This document shows, in pieces, positions 5,811 through 30,366 of a stretch of 30,390 nucleotides of DNA (positions within the stretch are counted from its first letter, which is position 1; every line of letters begins with the position of its first letter). The notes beneath the pieces were generated by a model. It did no database searches. It was not told the origin of the DNA and was given only the letters and a program-made list of their open reading frames with translations. The DNA is from a virus, in IMG/VR virus record IMGVR_UViG_3300019889_000030, positions 1-30,390 of that record; one strand, 5' to 3'. The translations under genes and the position numbers were made by a program.

Positions 5811-6014
5811 TTACTTGTCCCGGGTGTAGCGCAGGAACCGGCCCAGCTCGCGCCGCTCGACCCGGGGCGAGCTGAACGCTCGCCCTGGTCCCGTGCGAGA
5901 GCTGTAGCGGGTGAGGTGTCCTTCGGCCACCCAGTTGCGGATGGTGCGAGTCGAGACGCCGGCGAGTTCGGCCGCCTCGTCGTACGTGATGAGGTCCGTG
6001 GTCGTCATGGTCAC
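5811..6014 (-). CDS. MerR/excisionase-type helix-turn-helix DNA-binding protein
   Basis: 67 residues from the GTG at 6014. Clear HTH_17 pattern: LITYDEAAELAGVSTRTIRN, then WVAEGHLTRY, then a basic C-terminus. I chose GTG 6014 because GGAGGT lies 7 bases upstream; the in-frame ATG at 6047 would lie before the predicted transcription start (about 6043). The gene sits at the divergent promoter with its 15-bp palindrome. It is a natural candidate for the protein binding there, or for an excisionase or replication-switch regulator. No integrase gene is present to support an excisionase role. Confidence 0.8.
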   Translation of the reverse strand: MTMTTTDLITYDEAAELAGVSTRTIRNWVAEGHLTRYSSRTGPGRAFSSPRVERRELGRFLRYTRDK

Positions 6015-6049
6015 CGGGTCTACCTCCGGTCGATGGGGTGTTGGCACCG

Positions 6050-6079
6050 ACCCTACCCGATCACTTCCAGAGTTGACAA
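6050..6079 (-). promoter_or_regulatory. Leftward promoter of the HTH-polymerase-primase unit
   Basis: On the minus strand TTGTCA (6079-6074), an 18-base spacer, then TAGGGT (6055-6050). The predicted start is near 6043, about 29 bases before the GTG at 6014. Confidence 0.6.
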
Positions 6080-6083
6080 CTCT
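6069..6083. promoter_or_regulatory. 15-bp palindromic operator spanning both divergent -35 boxes
   Basis: AGAGTTGACAACTCT is symmetric about position 6076 (only the central base is unpaired). It contains TTGACA for the rightward promoter and TTGTCA for the leftward one, so one dimeric protein bound here would block both. Confidence 0.75.
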
Positions 6084-6102
6084 CTTCCACTTGCCTTAGA
6101 CT
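6073..6102 (+). promoter_or_regulatory. Rightward promoter of the helicase-RecB unit
   Basis: Consensus TTGACA (6073-6078), an 18-base spacer, then TAGACT (6097-6102). The predicted start is near 6109, with the first ATG at 6140 behind AGAGG. The spacing mirrors that of the leftward promoter. Confidence 0.7.
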
Positions 6103-6293: not shown

Positions 6294-6549
6294 GCTACCT
6301 CTGCGCGATTACGGAGTGCCTGACGTGAGCAGAGGCGACGTCGAGAGCCGCGCGGCCATTCAGGACTGGGTCACGCGCGAGATGGGTTCGAGTTACCGGG
6401 GCGTCCCGCGTCCGGAGCGCTACCGGGTCACGGTCGGCAAGGAGCTGACCGAGGCCCTGGCCTGGAAGGCGGGGGTGGACGCTGCACGCGGCGGGCATCC
6501 CGTCCGCCATGGTCACCGGCACGACACCGACCGAGGATCCCGTGGCTGA
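6286..6549 (+). CDS. Hypothetical protein with helicase-derived ends (chimeric)
   Basis: 87 residues from GTG 6286. The first ten residues (VAELPLRDYG) match the start of the helicase (VAELSLRDYQ), with 25 of 27 bases identical. The last 58 bases before the helicase junction (6482-6539) are identical to helicase sequence at 7349-7406 but read in another frame, giving an Arg/His-rich tail. The middle (residues 11-65) is unique and unrecognised. The gene looks like a chimera or remnant made from a helicase duplication, perhaps still translated because it couples to the helicase start. Function unknown. Confidence 0.55.
   Translation: MAELPLRDYGVPDVSRGDVESRAAIQDWVTREMGSSYRGVPRPERYRVTVGKELTEALAWKAGVDAARGGHPVRHGHRHDTDRGSRG
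6482..6539 (+). repeat. 58-bp perfect direct repeat, copy 1
   Basis: Identical to 7349-7406, 867 bases downstream. This copy lies before the helicase start and supplies the GAGG that precedes its GTG. Confidence 0.92.
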
Positions 6550-8206
6550 GCTATCTCTGCGCGACTACCAAGTCGACGCGCTCGCTGCGGTGCGGGACGC
6601 CTGGGCCTCTGGTATCCAGCGTCCCGCCGTGGTCGCACCGACCGGGTCCGGCAAGACGGTCATGTTCGCGCACCTGATCAGCGAGCACACGGCGCGTGGC
6701 GGATCGGACTACCGCGCGCTCGTGCTCGTACACCGTGACGAGTTGGCCGACCAGGCCATTGACAAGATCCGCCAGGTAGCTCCCGGACTGCACGTGGGCA
6801 AGGTCAAGGCGGATGTGAACGAGACGGAGGCGGACGTTGTTGTGGCGTCCGTGCAGACCTTGGCCCGGCCCTCCCGGCTCGCGCTCATGCTCAGCCGCCA
6901 GGAGGTGCACGGCTGGTTCGGCCTGGTCGTGGTCGACGAGGCCCACCACGCCGTGGCGCCGTCCTGGCGCGAGGTACTGACCTCCCTCGGTGCGTTCGAG
7001 AGGGCCCGGTTGGTCAACGTCGTTGGGTTCAGCGCCACGCTGGCGCGTGGTGACGGTGTCGGGCTGGGCTCGGTGTGGCAGAAGGTCGTCTACGCGGTGT
7101 CCCTGACCCGACTCATCCGGCGGGGCTACCTCGCCGACGTCCGGGGTGTCCAGGTCACCGTGGATGACCTGGACCTGTCCGACGTGCGGCAGACAGGCGG
7201 GGACTACCAAGTGGGCGCGCTCGGTACCGCGCTCACGGAGTCGATGGCGTCGCGCACCGTGGCCAAGGCGTACCGCGAGCACGCCGGCGACCGGCCCGGT
7301 GTGGTATTCGCGCCGACCGTTGCGGCGGCTGAGGAGCTGACCGAGGAACTGCACGCGGCGGGCATCCCGTCCGCCATGGTCACCGGCACGACACCGACCG
7401 AGGATCGTAAGCGGATCTACAGCGAGTACCAAGCTGGCCGCACCCAGGTGTTGGTCAACTGCATGGTGCTCACCGAGGGCTGGGACGCACCGTGGGCCAG
7501 CTGCGCGGTGATCGCCCGGCCGACCCGCTCAGCGCCGCTGTACCAGCAGATGGTGGGCCGCGTGCTCCGGCCCTACCCCGGCAAGACGGACGCGCTCGTG
7601 CTCGACGTGGTGGGCGCTAGTGGCCTCCACAAGCTCGCCACGCTCATCGACCTAGAGCCGGGAGCCGTCAGGTCCATGACGCCAGCACAGAGCTTCCTGG
7701 ACGCCGTGGAGGAGCAGGAAGCGGCTGACGGGGTCGAGCTGGACCGCAAGACGTTGGGTGGTGCGTTGCACGCTGAACAGGTGGAACTGTTCGAGCAGTC
7801 GACGTCGATGTGGTTGCAGACCGAGGCCGGCGTGTGGTTCATCCCGGTTACCGACGGTGACTGGATGCTGTGGCCGAGCACGGTGGCCGGTCACTGGGAC
7901 GCCTGCTACGCGCCCAAGGCCGAGGAGCTGTGGCGTCGGGTGCACACCGGGCTGTCCCTAGAACTGGCAATGTCCTGGACACAGGTGGAGGCCGAAGAGC
8001 AGGACGCCACGGTGGCCAGCAGGGGCTCGGCGTGGCGCAAGAGCGGTAAGGCATCGGAGCCGCAGGCAAGGTACCTCGTGTCAATCACCGAACTGTCCTA
8101 TGAGGACGCTAAGGCACTGACCAAGAATGAGGCAAGCAACCTGATTTCCATCAAGCTCGCATCTAAGAGATTTGACCGACGGTTCAGAAAAGAGATGATG
8201 AAATGA
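6542..8206 (+). CDS. SF2 DEAD/DEAH-box DNA helicase
   Basis: 554 residues from GTG 6542. Q-like motif LRDYQ at the N-terminus, Walker A APTGSGKT (32-39), DEAH (132-135), SAT (164-166), a second RecA domain with the VTGTTPTED stretch, and motif VI QMVGRVLRP (336-344): a complete SF2 helicase of the UvsW/SSL2-like group that remodels branched or forked DNA. The C-terminal 200 residues have no recognised domain. I chose GTG 6542 because it repeats the GTGGCTGA overlap of the two genes before it and has GAGG 6 bases upstream; an in-frame ATG at 6509 would add 11 residues taken from the duplicated segment. The stop overlaps the next start (ATGA). It sits with two nucleases, suggesting recombination-dependent replication or repair. 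Confidence 0.9.
   Translation: MAELSLRDYQVDALAAVRDAWASGIQRPAVVAPTGSGKTVMFAHLISEHTARGGSDYRALVLVHRDELADQAIDKIRQVAPGLHVGKVKADVNETEADVVVASVQTLARPSRLALMLSRQEVHGWFGLVVVDEAHHAVAPSWREVLTSLGAFERARLVNVVGFSATLARGDGVGLGSVWQKVVYAVSLTRLIRRGYLADVRGVQVTVDDLDLSDVRQTGGDYQVGALGTALTESMASRTVAKAYREHAGDRPGVVFAPTVAAAEELTEELHAAGIPSAMVTGTTPTEDRKRIYSEYQAGRTQVLVNCMVLTEGWDAPWASCAVIARPTRSAPLYQQMVGRVLRPYPGKTDALVLDVVGASGLHKLATLIDLEPGAVRSMTPAQSFLDAVEEQEAADGVELDRKTLGGALHAEQVELFEQSTSMWLQTEAGVWFIPVTDGDWMLWPSTVAGHWDACYAPKAEELWRRVHTGLSLELAMSWTQVEAEEQDATVASRGSAWRKSGKASEPQARYLVSITELSYEDAKALTKNEASNLISIKLASKRFDRRFRKEMMK
7349..7406 (+). repeat. 58-bp perfect direct repeat, copy 2 (native site in helicase)
   Basis: In-frame helicase sequence encoding HAAGIPSAMVTGTTPTED, the likely source of copy 1 at 6482-6539. 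Confidence 0.92.
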
Positions 8207-10318: not shown

Positions 10319-10347
10319 TTGACAAGGCCGGAACTAGCGCCTAGGCT
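10319..10347 (+). promoter_or_regulatory. Strong rightward promoter
   Basis: Perfect TTGACA (10319-10324), a 17-base spacer, and TAGGCT (10342-10347). The predicted start is near 10354, leaving an untranslated leader of about 217 bases before the ATG at 10571. Confidence 0.8.
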
Positions 10348-10353
10348 CAGAAA

Positions 10354-10570
10354 CATGGTCGGAGCGACGGGGTTCCTAGCCCCCCGGTAACTGGCAAGTC
10401 GGTGGCAGCCGGCGGCCCTCCAGAACTGGGATCCTGCCAGGTCACCAGGGCGGAGGGTTCTAGGACGGCGCACGGTGCACGAGCTAGTGCCACTACGTCT
10501 CCGGAGGTTCGAATCCTCCCCCGTCCACGGACACCCAGTGTCCACAGCGAACAGAACAGAGGAGAGCAGA
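10354..10570 (+). ncRNA. Untranslated leader or small RNA with tRNA-like 3' domain
   Basis: No convincing ORF. GGGG-TTCCTAG-CCCC (from about 10369) is a stem with a 7-base loop. CTGGCA (10391-10396) pairs with TGCCAG (10435-10440). At 10463-10527 GGACGG pairs with CCGTCC around a canonical T-arm. The gene behind it starts at 10571 with its own GAGGAG, so the leader is either a regulatory 5' UTR or the precursor of a separate RNA. It could also carry an attachment site. Confidence 0.4.
10463..10527 (+). tRNA. tRNA-like element (canonical T-arm and acceptor, no anticodon arm found)
   Basis: GGAGG-TTCGAAT-CCTCC (10503-10519) is a perfect T-arm. The next seven bases CCCGTCC pair with GGACGGC (10463-10469) at six of seven positions, followed by discriminator A but no encoded CCA. 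Only 33 bases separate acceptor and T-arm (about 42 is usual), and I find no 5-bp/7-base anticodon arm there. GCAC/GTGC could form a D-like stem. Possibilities: a degenerate or unusual tRNA, a tRNA mimic, or the tRNA-end identity of an attP site. Confidence 0.3.
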
Positions 10571-11373: not shown

Positions 11374-11685
11374 ATGCTGAAGCTCCCGTTCTGGAAGGAC
11401 GCCGTCGAGCGCGTCCTGGCCAGCGTGCTCGGTGCCCTCGGCGCGTACCTGGCCGCAGTGGCCATCACCCCGATGGACCTCCAGTGGTGGCAGGGGCTCG
11501 CCCTGGCCGGTCTGGCCGGACTCGTGTCGGCCGTCAAGGCGGCCATCGCGCGCTACATCGGCGACCCGGACAGCGCGTCGCTGGCGACCCCCGTCGAACC
11601 GAACGAGCACCTGCGCACCCCAGTACTCCGCGTGAACAGACACAGCAACCCGGCCGACTACGACGACGAGTCGGGTCAGCTCTAA
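11374..11685 (+). CDS. Holin (r1t-like actinophage type)
   Basis: 103 residues. An N-terminal helix with FWKDAVERVLASVLGALGAY, a second hydrophobic helix (LALAGLAGLVSAVKAAIA), then the GDPDSASL motif that marks this holin group, and a hydrophilic C-terminal tail. It should form lesions in the cytoplasmic membrane that let the endolysin out. Unusually it is not next to the endolysin, which is on the opposite strand at 14331-15011. Confidence 0.85.
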   Translation: MLKLPFWKDAVERVLASVLGALGAYLAAVAITPMDLQWWQGLALAGLAGLVSAVKAAIARYIGDPDSASLATPVEPNEHLRTPVLRVNRHSNPADYDDESGQL

Positions 11686-11747: not shown

Positions 11748-11999
11748 ATGTTGCACAGCACGGACCACGCTCAGGCTGCCCTCGACGCGGCCCCTCCATT
11801 CCCCCGAGACGGCGCGTGGACGCCGCTCCGGTACACCGAGGTCGAACGCTCCGACGCGGCCTACAGCATCGCCCTGGCCATCCGTGAGCACGCCTACATG
11901 CTGACCGCCCTCGAACGTAGCCGGCTAGGTATGGAGTTGGTCAGCCGGTCGTCCACGGACCACGCGCACCGCACTGAGTTCGACGAGGTGCCGTCATGA
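11748..11999 (+). CDS. Hypothetical protein
   Basis: 83 residues from ATG 11748, with GGAG 8 bases upstream. Mostly helical (YSIALAIREHAYMLTALERS) and acidic, without a signal peptide or recognised motif. The stop overlaps the next start as ATGA, so the two are co-translated. Confidence 0.55.
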   Translation: MLHSTDHAQAALDAAPPFPRDGAWTPLRYTEVERSDAAYSIALAIREHAYMLTALERSRLGMELVSRSSTDHAHRTEFDEVPS

Positions 12000-12415
12000 G
12001 CACGACTGGCACGACGTCCGGCGGTTTCGGCAACGTGGCGACCCGGACTCCGGCAGCTGGGCGCTGGCAGTGGGTCGGTACGGCGAACGGATGCGAGGCA
12101 CGGCACCTCACCGACGACCCGGACCTGTACCTGACGGCAGAGCCGCTGTCGTCGCCTCGGCTGCGTGGCGTCGCCCTGATCGATGACAGCGGCCGGGTGT
12201 ACGCGACCCGGCTGGAGCTGACCGCACAGGTGGCCGTCCAGTCCGACGAAGCATGCGCGTCGGCCAACGCTCAGCTCGTCCCGCGTCCGCCACTCGAACT
12301 CCCGCCCCCTGCTGTCGCCCTGGGCTACCTGACCCTCGACGATACCGCCGGCATACCGATGCACTGGCACGCGCAGTACGCCGAGCCGATGCCGTGGTCC
12401 TGGGGGCAGCCGTGA
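11996..12415 (+). CDS. Hypothetical protein carrying a duplicated nuclease segment
   Basis: 139 residues, not recognised. Residues around 94-107 (QLVPRPPLELPPPA) come from the 41-bp segment shared, in opposite coding sense, with the Hjc-like nuclease gene, so this stretch is an insertion and looks like a proline-rich linker. No membrane segment. ATGA overlap upstream and GTGA overlap downstream. Confidence 0.55.
   Translation: MSTTGTTSGGFGNVATRTPAAGRWQWVGTANGCEARHLTDDPDLYLTAEPLSSPRLRGVALIDDSGRVYATRLELTAQVAVQSDEACASANAQLVPRPPLELPPPAVALGYLTLDDTAGIPMHWHAQYAEPMPWSWGQP
12275..12315. repeat. 41-bp segment duplicated from 831-871 (copy 2)
   Basis: First 30 bases identical to 831-860, then about 9 of 11. 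In this gene it is read on the plus strand and encodes a proline-rich stretch, whereas the minus strand still spells the nuclease sequence SRGREFEWRTRDEL. Confidence 0.9.
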
Positions 12416-12510
12416 ACGCGGACCGGTGGATCATCGCCTTGGGCATCGCCGCCGCGCTGTGCCTGGTGGTCGCTGTCATCGCCCAGCTCACTCTGTGGAG
12501 CCTGCGGTGA
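12412..12510 (+). CDS. 32-residue membrane mini-protein
   Basis: VNADRWIIALGIAAALCLVV followed by AVIAQLTLWSLR: one hydrophobic helix filling almost the whole protein. GTG 12412 overlaps the upstream stop as GTGA. Small single-helix proteins like this in phages can be lysis or exclusion factors; role unknown. Confidence 0.45.
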   Translation: MNADRWIIALGIAAALCLVVAVIAQLTLWSLR

Positions 12511-12786: not shown

Positions 12787-12816
12787 TTGCAAAGAGTGGA
12801 AGAGTCCGGCTATGGT
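12787..12816 (+). promoter_or_regulatory. Promoter of a leaderless transcript
   Basis: TTGCAA (12787-12792), an 18-base spacer, TATGGT (12811-12816), then six bases and the ATG at 12823. Transcription would begin at or within a base or two of the start codon, the usual layout of actinobacterial leaderless genes. No ribosome binding site precedes the ATG. Confidence 0.6.
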
Positions 12817-12822
12817 CGCACC

Positions 12823-13173
12823 ATGACCAAGAACAGCCGGACCTTCCTCCTCGCCCTCGCATTCGGTGCCGGCGTGTCAATCCTCGCCACCCCGGCGGCG
12901 GCAGCCGAGCGTGCGCCGATCACCGTCAACACCTACGAGCTCCCCGCCGAGATCACCGCCGCTCGCGCGGACTGCTACGAGGCCGAGCGTGACGGCCGGG
13001 GCATTCCGGCCCTGGGCAGCGACGCGTACGTCACCTGGTGGAGCACCACCGACGCCGGCGCCCGCAACGCCTGGACACGCGCGTTCGATGGCTGCACGGC
13101 GGCGCACCCGATGCCCGGCGGCACGTGGAACTTCGCTGGCATGACGCTGGTCAAGACCGAGATCCACCCGTAA
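12823..13173 (+). CDS. Exported protein (signal peptide)
   Basis: 116 residues from ATG 12823. Signal peptide: basic TKNSR, hydrophobic TFLLALAFGAGVSILA, cleavage near ATPAAAA-ER. The mature part (about 88 residues) has two Cys (likely one disulphide) and a Trp-rich centre (YVTWWSTT, NAWTRAFDGC). It is first of three exported proteins and behind its own leaderless promoter, so it may be expressed when the rest of the phage is silent. Candidate lysogenic-conversion or host-surface factor; no family recognised. Confidence 0.65.
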   Translation: MTKNSRTFLLALAFGAGVSILATPAAAAERAPITVNTYELPAEITAARADCYEAERDGRGIPALGSDAYVTWWSTTDAGARNAWTRAFDGCTAAHPMPGGTWNFAGMTLVKTEIHP

Positions 13174-13219
13174 CGCTCGCTCTGCCGCACACTCAGATAT
13201 CCCAAGAAACGAGACCAGC

Positions 13220-13699
13220 ATGCACCAGCCCACTCCCCGCCTCCGGCGAGCCATCGGCCCCGCCGTGTTCTTCCTGCTCGCCGCCGTCGCCCTCGTCGGC
13301 ATCATCGCCGCGACCACCACCGACACCGAGACCAGCTTCCGGCCGCACAGTAGTGCCACGGCGGACGCCACGGGCGACGCTCCCATTCCTGCGGTGGGCA
13401 ACGCACCGTACGTTCCGGCACCTGGTGACTTCGCCTTGGCGACCACCGTGCTGGAAGAGCAGTGCTTCGGGTCCGCCGGCTGCAACGTGACGTTCCGCGT
13501 CACCGTCGAGTACCTGGCCGCCGAGCTCCCGGACGCGTCCCGCACGTTCACCGCCATCTATACCGTCACCGGTGGCGATGAGCCGTTGACGAACCGGTTC
13601 ACGATCACCGGGTCGGCGCTGTCGGTGCCCGCCGAGCATCACATCTCGACGTCCGGCCCAGGCTCCGTCCTGACCGCGACCGTCACCGGCACGCTGTGA
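13220..13699 (+). CDS. Exported or membrane-anchored protein
   Basis: 159 residues. Basic N-terminus, one hydrophobic segment (AIGPAVFFLLAAVALVGIIA, residues 11-30) without an obvious Ala-x-Ala site, then a Thr/Asp-rich linker and a beta-rich domain with two Cys (CFGSAGCNVTF) resembling an immunoglobulin-like sandwich. Probably anchored in the membrane with the domain outside. Same strand and close spacing to the exported proteins on both sides. Function unknown. Confidence 0.6.
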   Translation: MHQPTPRLRRAIGPAVFFLLAAVALVGIIAATTTDTETSFRPHSSATADATGDAPIPAVGNAPYVPAPGDFALATTVLEEQCFGSAGCNVTFRVTVEYLAAELPDASRTFTAIYTVTGGDEPLTNRFTITGSALSVPAEHHISTSGPGSVLTATVTGTL

Positions 13700-13728
13700 T
13701 GACGGCAAGCCCGACTAGAGGAGAACTG

Positions 13729-14121
13729 ATGCGCAAGCTGTTCACCATCATGGCCACCACTGCGGTAGGCATCGCCCTGGTCGGCGGGCCGGCCGCTGCG
13801 GACGCCGACCAGCACAACCGGCCGGAGGCACCTATCGCTATCTGGACGGCGACTTGTGTCGACTTCCGCTGTGACTTCACCGCACACGATCTGATCAGCG
13901 ACGGTGAGGACAACGTCGAGGTGCAGTGGTCGTACACCTACGACTGGACGTTCGGCAACGGCTCGGCAACGTCTGGTGACACATCCGGGTCGGTGTACGT
14001 CACCTACGCGGGTCCTGGCTACTACAGCGTCCACCTCGACGGCCGCGACCGGCTCCGCAACCGCACATCCTGGTTCTTCGAGGTGTGCCTGAACGCCGAT
14101 GGCACCGGCCCGCTCTGCTGA
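13729..14121 (+). CDS. Secreted protein with PKD-like domain
   Basis: 130 residues from ATG 13729, chosen for its strong AGAGGAGAA ribosome site; the frame opens earlier at a GTG. Signal peptide MRKLFTIMATTAVGIALVGG ending near PAAADA. The mature part matches a PKD/Ig-like sandwich: YDWTFGNGSATSGDTSGS, then YVTYAGPGYYSVHLDGRDR, with Cys pairs (TCVDFRC and the C-terminal CLNADGTGPLC). PKD domains mediate extracellular protein or carbohydrate binding. Not part of the virion module, so it is more likely released by the infected or lysogenic host. Confidence 0.7.
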   Translation: MRKLFTIMATTAVGIALVGGPAAADADQHNRPEAPIAIWTATCVDFRCDFTAHDLISDGEDNVEVQWSYTYDWTFGNGSATSGDTSGSVYVTYAGPGYYSVHLDGRDRLRNRTSWFFEVCLNADGTGPLC

Positions 14122-14140: not shown

Positions 14141-14171
14141 GAGCCCCGCCAGGATCATCCTGGCGGGGCTC
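14141..14171. terminator. Strong hairpin between converging transcription units
   Basis: Two 15-base arms starting GAGCCCCGCC pair perfectly about a single central base (14156), giving a practical loop of 3-5 bases. It lies 19 bases after the plus-strand stop and 16 before the end of the minus-strand unit, so it can serve both. No U-run. Confidence 0.85.
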
Positions 14172-14187: not shown

Positions 14188-14334
14188 CTACGTGGTCAGC
14201 TTCAGCACGAGATCGGCACCGGCCAACACAGCGCCGGCAATGAGCATCGGTTGTGTGGCTCGACTGCCCAGCAACAGGCCAGCGCCGATGAGCAACACCG
14301 CGACGGGCAGCAGGACTAACCGGACCGTGGTCAC
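14188..14334 (-). CDS. Two-helix membrane protein, second holin candidate
   Basis: 48 residues from GTG 14334, which overlaps the endolysin stop as GTGA. Two hydrophobic segments, LVLLPVAVLLIGAGLLLGS and PMLIAGAVLAGADLVL, joined by a short polar turn (RATQ), with a Lys near the end. Small two-helix proteins encoded directly after an endolysin are usually holins or their regulators. Gene order and topology are the only evidence. Confidence 0.6.
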   Translation of the reverse strand: MTTVRLVLLPVAVLLIGAGLLLGSRATQPMLIAGAVLAGADLVLKLTT

Positions 14335-15011
14335 CGCTCAGACCCCGGTCCGGCGAGACGCTCCGTGATCAACGTGGTCAGCGCCGCGAGCGACGCCTTG
14401 ACCTCATCCATCTCCCGGCTCATCTCACTAATGCGGAATCCCATGACCGTCACCCACTCGACGGCCGGGTGGGTCTCCGCTTTCTTCGTGACCGGGTCCA
14501 CTCCGGTGCACTTGGCCATCCAGACATCGTTGGGGGTAGGCAAGTCGTCCTCCTGTGCTCCAAGGTTCACGGCGGCTATCGCCACCGCGTGGTAGTCGGC
14601 GTTGATCTCGAAGTGCATCTCGTCCTTGCGGCCGAGGTAATCGCCACCCCACCGCACCGTCCCGCCGACCTCGGCGAGAATGGCGTGAATCGTGGCGACC
14701 TGACCCGAGCTGAACGTCCCGACCGACCCGAGCGGGTGCCGTGGCGCGTTCACGTCGATCGCCGTACCGCTGGCATGATTTGACAGGCCGGTGGTGCCGC
14801 GCACGTCGCGGTATGCCCAACCCCAGCACCAGCCGTCCACCAGTGCTTCGACACGGCGGTGGAATTGCTCAGCCACGTAAGCCAGCACGTCACCGGCCGG
14901 CCCGCCGACCACGCCACCGGGGAAGCTCGCGCCCATCACCGACCACGCGCCGTTCACGCCAAGCGCGCGCTTGTCAGGACCCGCCGGCCAACCGTTCTGC
15001 GATGTCGCCAT
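14331..15011 (-). CDS. Endolysin, M15-family peptidase
   Basis: 226 residues from ATG 15011, behind GAGGAGAGC. The M15/VanY-like signature is complete: SNHASGTAID with zinc ligands His79 and Asp86 and, after the KDEMHFEI segment, His133. It should cut peptide stems or crosslinks of peptidoglycan. The C-terminal 80 residues (from about QEDDLPTPNDVW) look helical with a coiled coil at the end and may bind the wall or oligomerise. No signal peptide, so release needs a holin. It is near the end of the late operon. Confidence 0.85.
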   Translation of the reverse strand: MATSQNGWPAGPDKRALGVNGAWSVMGASFPGGVVGGPAGDVLAYVAEQFHRRVEALVDGWCWGWAYRDVRGTTGLSNHASGTAIDVNAPRHPLGSVGTFSSGQVATIHAILAEVGGTVRWGGDYLGRKDEMHFEINADYHAVAIAAVNLGAQEDDLPTPNDVWMAKCTGVDPVTKKAETHPAVEWVTVMGFRISEMSREMDEVKASLAALTTLITERLAGPGSER

Positions 15012-15021
15012 GTGCTCTCCT

Positions 15022-15627
15022 CTACGTGCAAGTGTAGGTGGGGGAAGCGTCGTCCACGTTCGAGCGCGTGCAGGTGTGTTCGAGCCCCAGCGCGTCCGTG
15101 TAGGTCCAGCTCGTTGGCGGCCGGCCATCCTGCCCATCGGAGCCGGGAGCGCCATCGGCACCTGCGGCCCCGTCGGTGCCATCCTGTCCAGGCAGCCCTC
15201 GTGCGGCCGCTCCAGGCGGCCCCGCCGCGCCGTCCGCTCCGTTGGCACCATCCGCCCCTGGCGGTCCTGTTGGTCCGGTCGGTCCAATCACGCCTTGGTT
15301 CCCTGTCGCGCCGGCCGGTCCCTGCTCGCCTTGGGGACCTGTCGCACCGCGCTCACCCTGCGCTCCTGTCGCGCCGGGCAGGTCCTGGACCTTGTTGGCC
15401 TGCTGGCACGCGGAGCCGAGCGCGGTAGCTGCCTCCCCGCCTCTCGCACAGACGCGGGCCACCTGGTCAGCGAGCGTGGCTCCCTCGTCGGCGACCACAA
15501 CAGCCTGGTTGGTGTCGACCCGGTCGGTGATGGTGGTTACGGTGAAGTACCCGACGACGAGCACGAGCAGCACGGCCGCTCCTGCGATCAGCCGGCGGTA
15601 CCGAGTCCTCGTTGCGCTCTCCGTCAT
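15022..15627 (-). CDS. Membrane-anchored collagen-like protein
   Basis: 201 residues. Basic N-terminus, transmembrane segment LIAGAAVLLVLVVGYFTVTT (13-32), then a polar region and about 85 residues of Gly-X-Y triplets (GATGAQGERGATGPQGEQ and onwards) broken by short interruptions, and a Cys-containing C-terminal tail (HTCTRSNVDD...TYTCT). Gly-X-Y stretches form triple helices; in phages they usually lie in tail fibres, but here the membrane anchor points to the cell envelope. Between the tail genes and the endolysin, with an ATGA overlap upstream. Role in lysis or host surface is inferred only. Confidence 0.75.
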   Translation of the reverse strand: MTESATRTRYRRLIAGAAVLLVLVVGYFTVTTITDRVDTNQAVVVADEGATLADQVARVCARGGEAATALGSACQQANKVQDLPGATGAQGERGATGPQGEQGPAGATGNQGVIGPTGPTGPPGADGANGADGAAGPPGAAARGLPGQDGTDGAAGADGAPGSDGQDGRPPTSWTYTDALGLEHTCTRSNVDDASPTYTCT

Positions 15628-15869
15628 GGCTTGCTCCGTAGCTGGTCTATCTCTTTCTCCACGCGGCGCCGTGCGGCTCGCTCCCGATCGACATCCCGGT
15701 CCCGTTCGGCAAGCTCCATGTCATGTTGCTTGGCCATCCGGTCCAGCTCGCGTGCGTGCCGAGCCTCACTGGACGCCTCCCTTCGTAGCAGCAAGATCAG
15801 GATGTAGCCGAATCCGGACATGATGCCGAGCTGTGGCAAGGACTGGATTGCCGCTGACCAGAAGTCCAC
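15624..15869 (-). CDS. Membrane protein with coiled coil
   Basis: 81 residues from GTG 15869, with AAGGGAG 7 bases upstream. N-terminal hydrophobic helix (IMSGFGYILILLLRR), then a long charged coiled coil (ELDRMAKQHDMELAERDRDV onwards). This architecture occurs in actinophage lysis cassettes as holin-associated or spanin-like proteins. The stop overlaps the collagen-like gene start. Confidence 0.6.
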   Translation of the reverse strand: MDFWSAAIQSLPQLGIMSGFGYILILLLRREASSEARHARELDRMAKQHDMELAERDRDVDRERAARRRVEKEIDQLRSKP

Positions 15870-30220: not shown

Positions 30221-30250
30221 AGTATGCCACGCACTGCCGACATACGTCAC
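30221..30250 (-). promoter_or_regulatory. Possible late promoter for the TerS operon
   Basis: On the minus strand GTGACG, 18 bases, CATACT, positioned about 50 bases before the TerS start, with the -35 inside repeat copy 1. Weak match; a phage-controlled promoter could look different. Confidence 0.3.
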
Positions 30251-30366
30251 GCACCGTGTTATTGATCTTCTCAAGATTGGTACGGGCGTACCGGTTTGGA
30301 CTGCCGACATACGTCACGCACCGTGTTGTTGATCTTCTCAAGATCGGTACGGGCGTGCCGGTTTGG
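30233..30366. repeat. Two tandem 67-bp repeats upstream of the terminase genes
   Basis: Copies 30233-30299 and 30300-30366 abut exactly and differ at only three bases. Each holds three short inverted repeats: CACG-cac-CGTG, GATCTT-ctc-AAGATC (last base T in copy 1) and GGTAC-gggc-GTACC (GTGCC in copy 2). Likely protein-binding array: terminase small subunit/packaging site or late-gene control. Confidence 0.9.

What the first reader, a model, noticed from the sequence alone, without database searches (positions are those of the whole stretch)
12787..14121. Cassette of three exported proteins behind a leaderless promoter
Three adjacent genes have signal or anchor sequences, with disulphide-type Cys pairs and, in the third, a PKD-like domain. 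The first has TTGCAA-18-TATGGT ending six bases before its ATG and no ribosome site, so it can be expressed independently of the phage programme. This is the form expected for a lysogenic-conversion module altering host surface or secretion; none of the three is recognised.
Basis: partly seen in the sequence, partly recalled or inferred. Interest (0 to 1): 0.68.

Follow-up and report, generated by a model that had tools for sequence, protein, structure and literature searches.

The report
Exported-protein cassette beside phage lysis genes
A small phage of actinobacteria carries three neighbouring genes for proteins exported to the host cell surface, one from a widespread unstudied family found near phage immunity genes and bacterial defence genes, so the cassette probably changes the infected cell's surface, perhaps to keep rival phages out.

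Summary
Genes 12823-13173 (g1), 13220-13699 (g2) and 13729-14121 (g3) all have N-terminal export or anchor sequences and even Cys counts. g3 carries a Pfam PKD domain. TTGCAA-18-TATGGT ends 6 nt before g1's ATG. This is the only leaderless-type promoter geometry among 44 gene starts (P about 0.025 in shuffles), and g1 has almost no ribosome site. "None is recognised" is wrong for g2. It belongs to an unnamed family (PHROG 6812/30705) with an invariant C[FY]G[ST]AGC loop. At least 80 chromosomal loci, 43 IMG/VR loci and 53 phage records carry it. g2 is predicted to be a membrane-anchored extracellular beta-sandwich (pLDDT about 97). Relatives sit beside repressor and integrase genes in several temperate phages, or at the end of the non-structural arm facing lysis or tail genes. 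On chromosomes they recur beside type I restriction-modification genes. This fits a conversion or exclusion role. However, the window record has no tyrosine or serine recombinase and no clear repressor, so lysogenic conversion by this phage is unproven; "lytic conversion" fits equally well. g1 and g3 have no relatives. Best reading: a conversion-type ("moron") cassette acting at the host envelope, probably against superinfection. No function was shown.

The parts
12787..12816 (+). Promoter-like element TTGCAA-18-TATGGT; -10 ends 6 nt before the g1 ATG (leaderless geometry)
   Evidence: sequence; pattern and shuffle tests
12823..13173 (+). g1: 116-aa secreted protein (Sec signal peptide, cleavage expected about residue 28; Cys 51 and 91); orphan; weak beta-alpha-beta-alpha-beta prediction
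13220..13699 (+). g2: 159-aa signal-anchored protein with extracellular 7-strand beta-sandwich (residues 66-159), Cys-clamped loop CFGSAGC 82-88; PHROG 6812/30705 family
13729..14121 (+). g3: 130-aa secreted single-PKD-domain protein, 4 Cys, strong Shine-Dalgarno (TAGAGGAGAACTG)
14141..14171 (.). 14-bp perfect hairpin between the convergent cassette and the endolysin arm; probable bidirectional terminator (no T-run)
   Evidence: z -4.9 and -5.8
10319..10347 (+). Upstream promoter-like element TTGACA-17-TAGGCT that could drive read-through into the cassette
11374..11685 (+). Holin (Phage_r1t_holin, PF16945) upstream in the same transcriptional direction
14331..15011 (-). Endolysin (PHROG 1512) convergent with the cassette

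Best explanation
The three genes are a conversion-type ('moron') cassette: accessory exported proteins at the 3' end of the rightward arm, between the holin gene and the convergent endolysin. They are probably transcribed by host RNA polymerase from a leaderless promoter at 12787-12823, as well as by read-through from 10319. g1 and g3 are secreted. g2 is tethered in the cytoplasmic membrane with a beta-sandwich domain outside. The most likely role is to alter the infected cell's envelope against other phages (superinfection exclusion), with the invariant Cys-clamped CFGSAGC loop of g2 as binding or structural tip. Shown by computation: signal and anchor sequences, family membership and predicted fold of g2, gene order, promoter geometry. 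Inferred: expression, localisation and the exclusion function. It may act during lytic infection, since no integration genes are present.
For: Export signals and Cys pairs in all three. Promoter geometry beyond chance. The g2 family has an invariant loop and is anchored in two ways, 84 TM-anchored and 21 lipoprotein-like by a rough classifier, so the domain's place outside the membrane is what is kept. High-confidence beta-sandwich. Phage relatives are annotated 'lipoprotein'. Relatives lie in repressor/integrase regions. 25 of 35 other g2-bearing viral records encode a recombinase. Chromosomal relatives in Micromonospora and Mycobacterium lie beside type I methylase/specificity genes and, in Micromonospora, an AAA ATPase resembling defence proteins. 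Precedent: Ltp of phage TP-J34, a prophage-expressed surface lipoprotein from a lysogeny module that blocks DNA injection (PMC3952083).
Against: No functional data. No recombinase or clear repressor in this record. g1 and g3 have no relatives, so the three-gene set is not conserved and may be an accidental neighbourhood: flanks of g2 relatives elsewhere are not clearly enriched for exported proteins (9-12% against 6% background). There was no control rate for recombinases in comparable actinophages, and isolate-derived records are biased to prophages. The fold match to solved structures is weak.
Confidence: 0.42

Rival explanations
1. True lysogenic conversion: the phage is temperate (integration genes lost, unrecognised or missing from the record), and the cassette is expressed from the prophage to change host surface or secretion.
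For: g2 relatives lie in lysogeny regions of temperate phages. Promoter-like site with host-type hexamers. A small excisionase/MerR-like HTH lies by the divergent promoters near 6.07 kb. A tRNA-like 3' half at 10463-10527 could be an attP relic.
Against: No tyrosine or serine recombinase in six frames. Gene order with the record's ends between HNH and TerS suggests a near-complete genome. ARAGORN and Rfam call no tRNA.
Confidence: 0.22
2. Lysis accessory: the exported proteins belong to the lysis module (holin upstream, endolysin convergent) and help disrupt or time disruption of the envelope.
For: Position between holin and endolysin. Several other small membrane proteins lie nearby (12412-12510, 14188-14334, 15624-15869). 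Omegaviruses and L104 keep g2 at the same kind of boundary.
Against: g2 relatives also occur on chromosomes away from lysis genes and in defence islands. No lysis family is matched by g1, g2 or g3.
Confidence: 0.14
3. Virion decoration: Ig-like and PKD-like domains displayed on the particle.
For: Ig-like and PKD-like domains are common on phage particles (own knowledge).
Against: Cleavable signal peptides and a membrane anchor; genes lie outside the structural arm; g2 relatives include lipoproteins and chromosomal genes.
Confidence: 0.04

Closest known systems
PHROG 6812 / 30705 'lipoprotein' family of mycobacteriophages (Baka gp61, LittleE gp57, Rem711 gp45, Nergal gp68, Duke13, 32HC)
   Same: g2 shares the domain, the invariant CFGSAGC loop and the anchoring outside the membrane (about 30-40% identity)
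   Different: Those phages are larger and carry integrases where checked; g1 and g3 are absent; the g2 anchor is a transmembrane helix rather than a lipobox
Ltp of temperate Streptococcus phage TP-J34 (superinfection-exclusion lipoprotein)
   Same: Small surface-tethered phage protein from a lysogeny-type region
   Different: Different bacterial group; no sequence relation was tested; exclusion has been shown for Ltp but not here
Llp lipoprotein of virulent phage T5 (lytic conversion; own knowledge)
   Same: Exported protein of a phage without lysogeny that protects the infected cell from superinfection
   Different: Gram-negative outer-membrane lipoprotein acting on a receptor; unrelated sequence expected, not tested
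PKD domain proteins (PF00801)
   Same: g3 matches the second half of the PKD profile and has a short-spaced Cys pair like that of an actinobacterial PKD domain
   Different: g3 is one stand-alone secreted domain; usual PKD domains are parts of larger enzymes or surface proteins (own knowledge)

Membership tests
PHROG 6812/30705 g2 family | Sequence similarity across the extracellular domain | tested here: met
   hmmscan E 5.8e-16 and 1.3e-15; tblastn E about 1e-12 to 53 phage records
PHROG 6812/30705 g2 family | C[FY]G[ST]AGC Cys-clamped loop | tested here: met
   C82-FGSAG-C88 present; C, G, S, A, G, C invariant in the 55-member alignment
PHROG 6812/30705 g2 family | Membrane anchor by TM helix or lipobox | tested here: met
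   hydrophobic segment near residues 11-31, Kyte-Doolittle 3.03
PKD domain (PF00801), g3 | Score above curated cut-off | tested here: met
   25.7 against 23.5 bits, but only profile positions 30-71 of 80
Lysogenic conversion module | Carried by a temperate phage with integration or maintenance genes | tested here: not met
   no PF00589 or PF00239 in the record; only a small HTH. The record may be incomplete, so the phage's own lifestyle remains open
Lysogenic conversion module | Expressed in the prophage state | not testable with these tools
   needs RNA-seq of a lysogen
Superinfection exclusion proteins | Phage-encoded, tethered outside the cytoplasmic membrane | tested here: met
   prediction only: signal-anchor plus extracellular beta-sandwich
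Superinfection exclusion proteins | Blocks infection by other phages | not testable with these tools
   needs plating assays
Leaderless gene | Transcription starts at the start codon, no Shine-Dalgarno | tested here: inconclusive
   geometry and weak SD fit; the start site was not mapped

The most novel reading that the evidence does not exclude
The CFGSAGC beta-sandwich family is an unrecognised surface-exclusion (anti-phage) factor of Actinomycetota, shared between prophage immunity regions and chromosomal defence islands, and here carried by a phage without integration genes together with two orphan secreted partners as a lytic-conversion cassette.
Probability: 0.2. Interest if true: 0.7.

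Novelty: new member of a known kind. Interest (0 to 1): 0.4.

Why it matters
Phage genes that alter the host surface decide which phages can share a cell. The g2 family is common in actinobacteria and their phages (Streptomyces, Mycobacterium, Micromonospora, Amycolatopsis and others), has an invariant loop, and has no assigned function or Pfam entry. If it excludes phages, it would name a widespread defence factor relevant to phage work in these hosts. Even if not, the case shows a likely leaderless promoter giving accessory phage genes their own start.

Tried and rejected
g1 relatives: none in annotated phages, IMG/VR, or about 500 Pseudonocardiaceae and Micromonosporaceae genomes. The few E 1e-4 to 1e-5 hits were judged chance matches: low identity, two of three with stop codons inside. 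g3: only generic PKD domains. IMG/VR contigs with a related endolysin do not carry the cassette, and capsid relatives were short fragments. NCBIfam, Pfam and PADLOC matches of g2 relatives (GltJ, PD-T4-6 and others) are scattered and weak and were judged to come from proline-rich or TM tails, not the domain. PDB fold search: no clear relative, Foldseek best E 0.12, VIA best Z 6.4, rows mostly beta-sandwich domains of unrelated proteins. The AlphaFold model of g1 (pLDDT 56) was too poor to search. The tRNA-like piece as an attP: 4 of 296 genomes carry a one-mismatch match, no host found. A three-gene set conserved elsewhere: not found. The virion-protein reading was rejected because of the signal peptides.

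Full report
**What was checked.** The window is a 30,390-base virus record with actinophage-type terminase, portal, capsid, tail, endolysin, DNA polymerase, primase/helicase, helicase and exonuclease genes. The minus strand carries the replication genes and, reading across the record's ends, HNH, TerS and the structural genes down to the endolysin at 14331-15011. The plus strand runs from about 6.1 kb to 14121. The cassette is the last plus-strand block and faces the endolysin across a perfect 14-bp hairpin at 14141-14171.

**The three genes.** g1 (12823-13173), g2 (13220-13699) and g3 (13729-14121) have coding-type GC periodicity. g1 and g3 begin with Sec signal peptides (MTKNSRTFLLALAFGAGVSILATPAAAA / MRKLFTIMATTAVGIALVGGPAAA). 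g2 begins with a very hydrophobic signal-anchor. Cys counts in the exported parts are 2, 2 and 4. g3 is a stand-alone PKD domain (25.7 bits against a cut-off of 23.5), with a short-spaced Cys pair like that of an actinobacterial PKD domain.

**The promoter.** TTGCAA-18-TATGGT ends 6 nt before the g1 ATG, so transcription would start at or next to the start codon. TTGN3-N16-19-TAN3T occurs 9 times on both strands of the window. Four of these lie upstream of genes, at 6073 (+), 6079 (-), 10319 (+) and 12787 (+). In dinucleotide shuffles of the 44 upstream regions the leaderless geometry is expected at 0.025 genes, and one was seen. g1 has one of the weakest ribosome-site scores, -2.7 kcal/mol, where most genes lie between -5.5 and -13. 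Leaderless genes are common in mycobacteria: 47.5% of analysed genes in M. smegmatis (PMC5741613). The site is therefore plausible and better than chance, but unmapped. A separate start does not make the cassette independent of the phage programme, because the 10319 site and a holin gene lie upstream in the same direction.

**g2 is not unrecognised.** It matches PHROG 6812 and 30705 (E about 1e-16), 53 phage records, 43 IMG/VR loci and at least 80 chromosomal loci, nearly all in Actinomycetota. The motif C[FY]G[ST]AGC is invariant apart from the second and fourth positions. With a 55-member alignment, AlphaFold gives residues 66-159 as a seven-stranded beta-sandwich at pLDDT about 97; the two Cys sit at the ends of strands 1 and 2 and would close the loop between them (the disulphide is inferred). 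Foldseek finds only family members confidently, annotated 'lipoprotein' in mycobacteriophages 32HC and Duke13. No solved structure matches clearly. A rough classifier finds 84 TM-anchored and 21 lipoprotein-like members. The nearest relative by tree is in IMG/VR contig L092.

**Where relatives lie.** In Rem711 the order is immunity repressor, integrase, g2 relative. In L103, L044, L105, L109, L113 and L129 it lies within six genes of a tyrosine integrase, usually with repressor- or excisionase-type HTH genes. In L092 it is two genes from a repressor-like gene beside a divergent HTH gene. In Omegaviruses (Baka, LittleE) and L104 it lies at the end of an arm facing lysis or tail genes, as in the window. 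Of 35 other g2-bearing viral records, 25 have a tyrosine or serine recombinase; no control set was run. Chromosomal relatives in Micromonospora and Mycobacterium recur beside type I methylase or specificity genes and, in Micromonospora, an AAA/SMC-type ATPase similar to defence proteins.

**What argues against lysogeny here.** The window has no PF00589 or PF00239 match in six frames. Its regulator-like protein at 5811-6047 is a small HTH of MerR/excisionase type. The record's ends fall between HNH and TerS, as expected for a near-complete genome cut at a packaging site (inference). So the phage may be virulent, with the cassette acting during infection.

**Interpretation.** The evidence fits accessory exported proteins acting on the host envelope. 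The association of g2's family with immunity regions and defence islands makes phage exclusion the most likely function, with Ltp of TP-J34 as the experimental precedent (PMC3952083) and T5 Llp as a virulent-phage analogue (own knowledge). That is inference; nothing was tested functionally. g1 and g3 are orphans, so the three-gene set as such is not a conserved module, and exported neighbours of g2 relatives are only slightly more frequent than background.

Noticed in passing
10463-10527: tRNA-like sequence (GGACGG/CCGTCC ends, GGAGGTTCGAATCCTCC T-arm) downstream of the 10319 promoter-like site; not called by ARAGORN or Rfam. Possibly a degenerate tRNA or an att relic.
   Followed up: partly
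12412-12510: 32-aa hydrophobic peptide gene overlapping the preceding gene by GTGA, just upstream of the cassette; a candidate small lysis or membrane protein.
   Followed up: no
14188-15869 (-): Endolysin flanked by a 48-aa TM protein (14188-14334), a collagen-like protein with an N-terminal TM segment (15022-15627, collagen-like minor tail PHROG 1806) and an 81-aa TM protein (15624-15869).
   Followed up: partly
30233-30366: Two 67-bp tandem repeats (96% alike) beside the small terminase gene at the record's end; possible packaging-site repeats.
   Followed up: no
828-871 and 12272-12315; 6482-6539 and 7349-7406: Two dispersed direct duplications: 44 nt at 93% identity and 58 nt at 100%. The first places a piece of the 366-881 nuclease gene's sequence inside gene 11996-12415; the second repeats part of the helicase gene at its own 5' end.
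   Followed up: no
6073-6102 (+) and 6079-6050 (-): Overlapping divergent sigma70-like promoters (TTGACA-18-TAGACT and TTGTCA-18-TAGGGT) between the two arms, beside the HTH gene 5811-6047.
   Followed up: partly
L015 and L038 (chromosomal loci): g2 relatives lie divergently from type I methylase genes in Micromonospora and Mycobacterium; the Micromonospora island also has a DUF4352 lipoprotein, DUF6119 and an AAA/SMC ATPase.
   Followed up: partly
L103:7530-7916 (-): A g2-bearing temperate phage carries another small secreted protein (128 aa, signal peptide) beside a holin-like gene of its lysis region.
   Followed up: no
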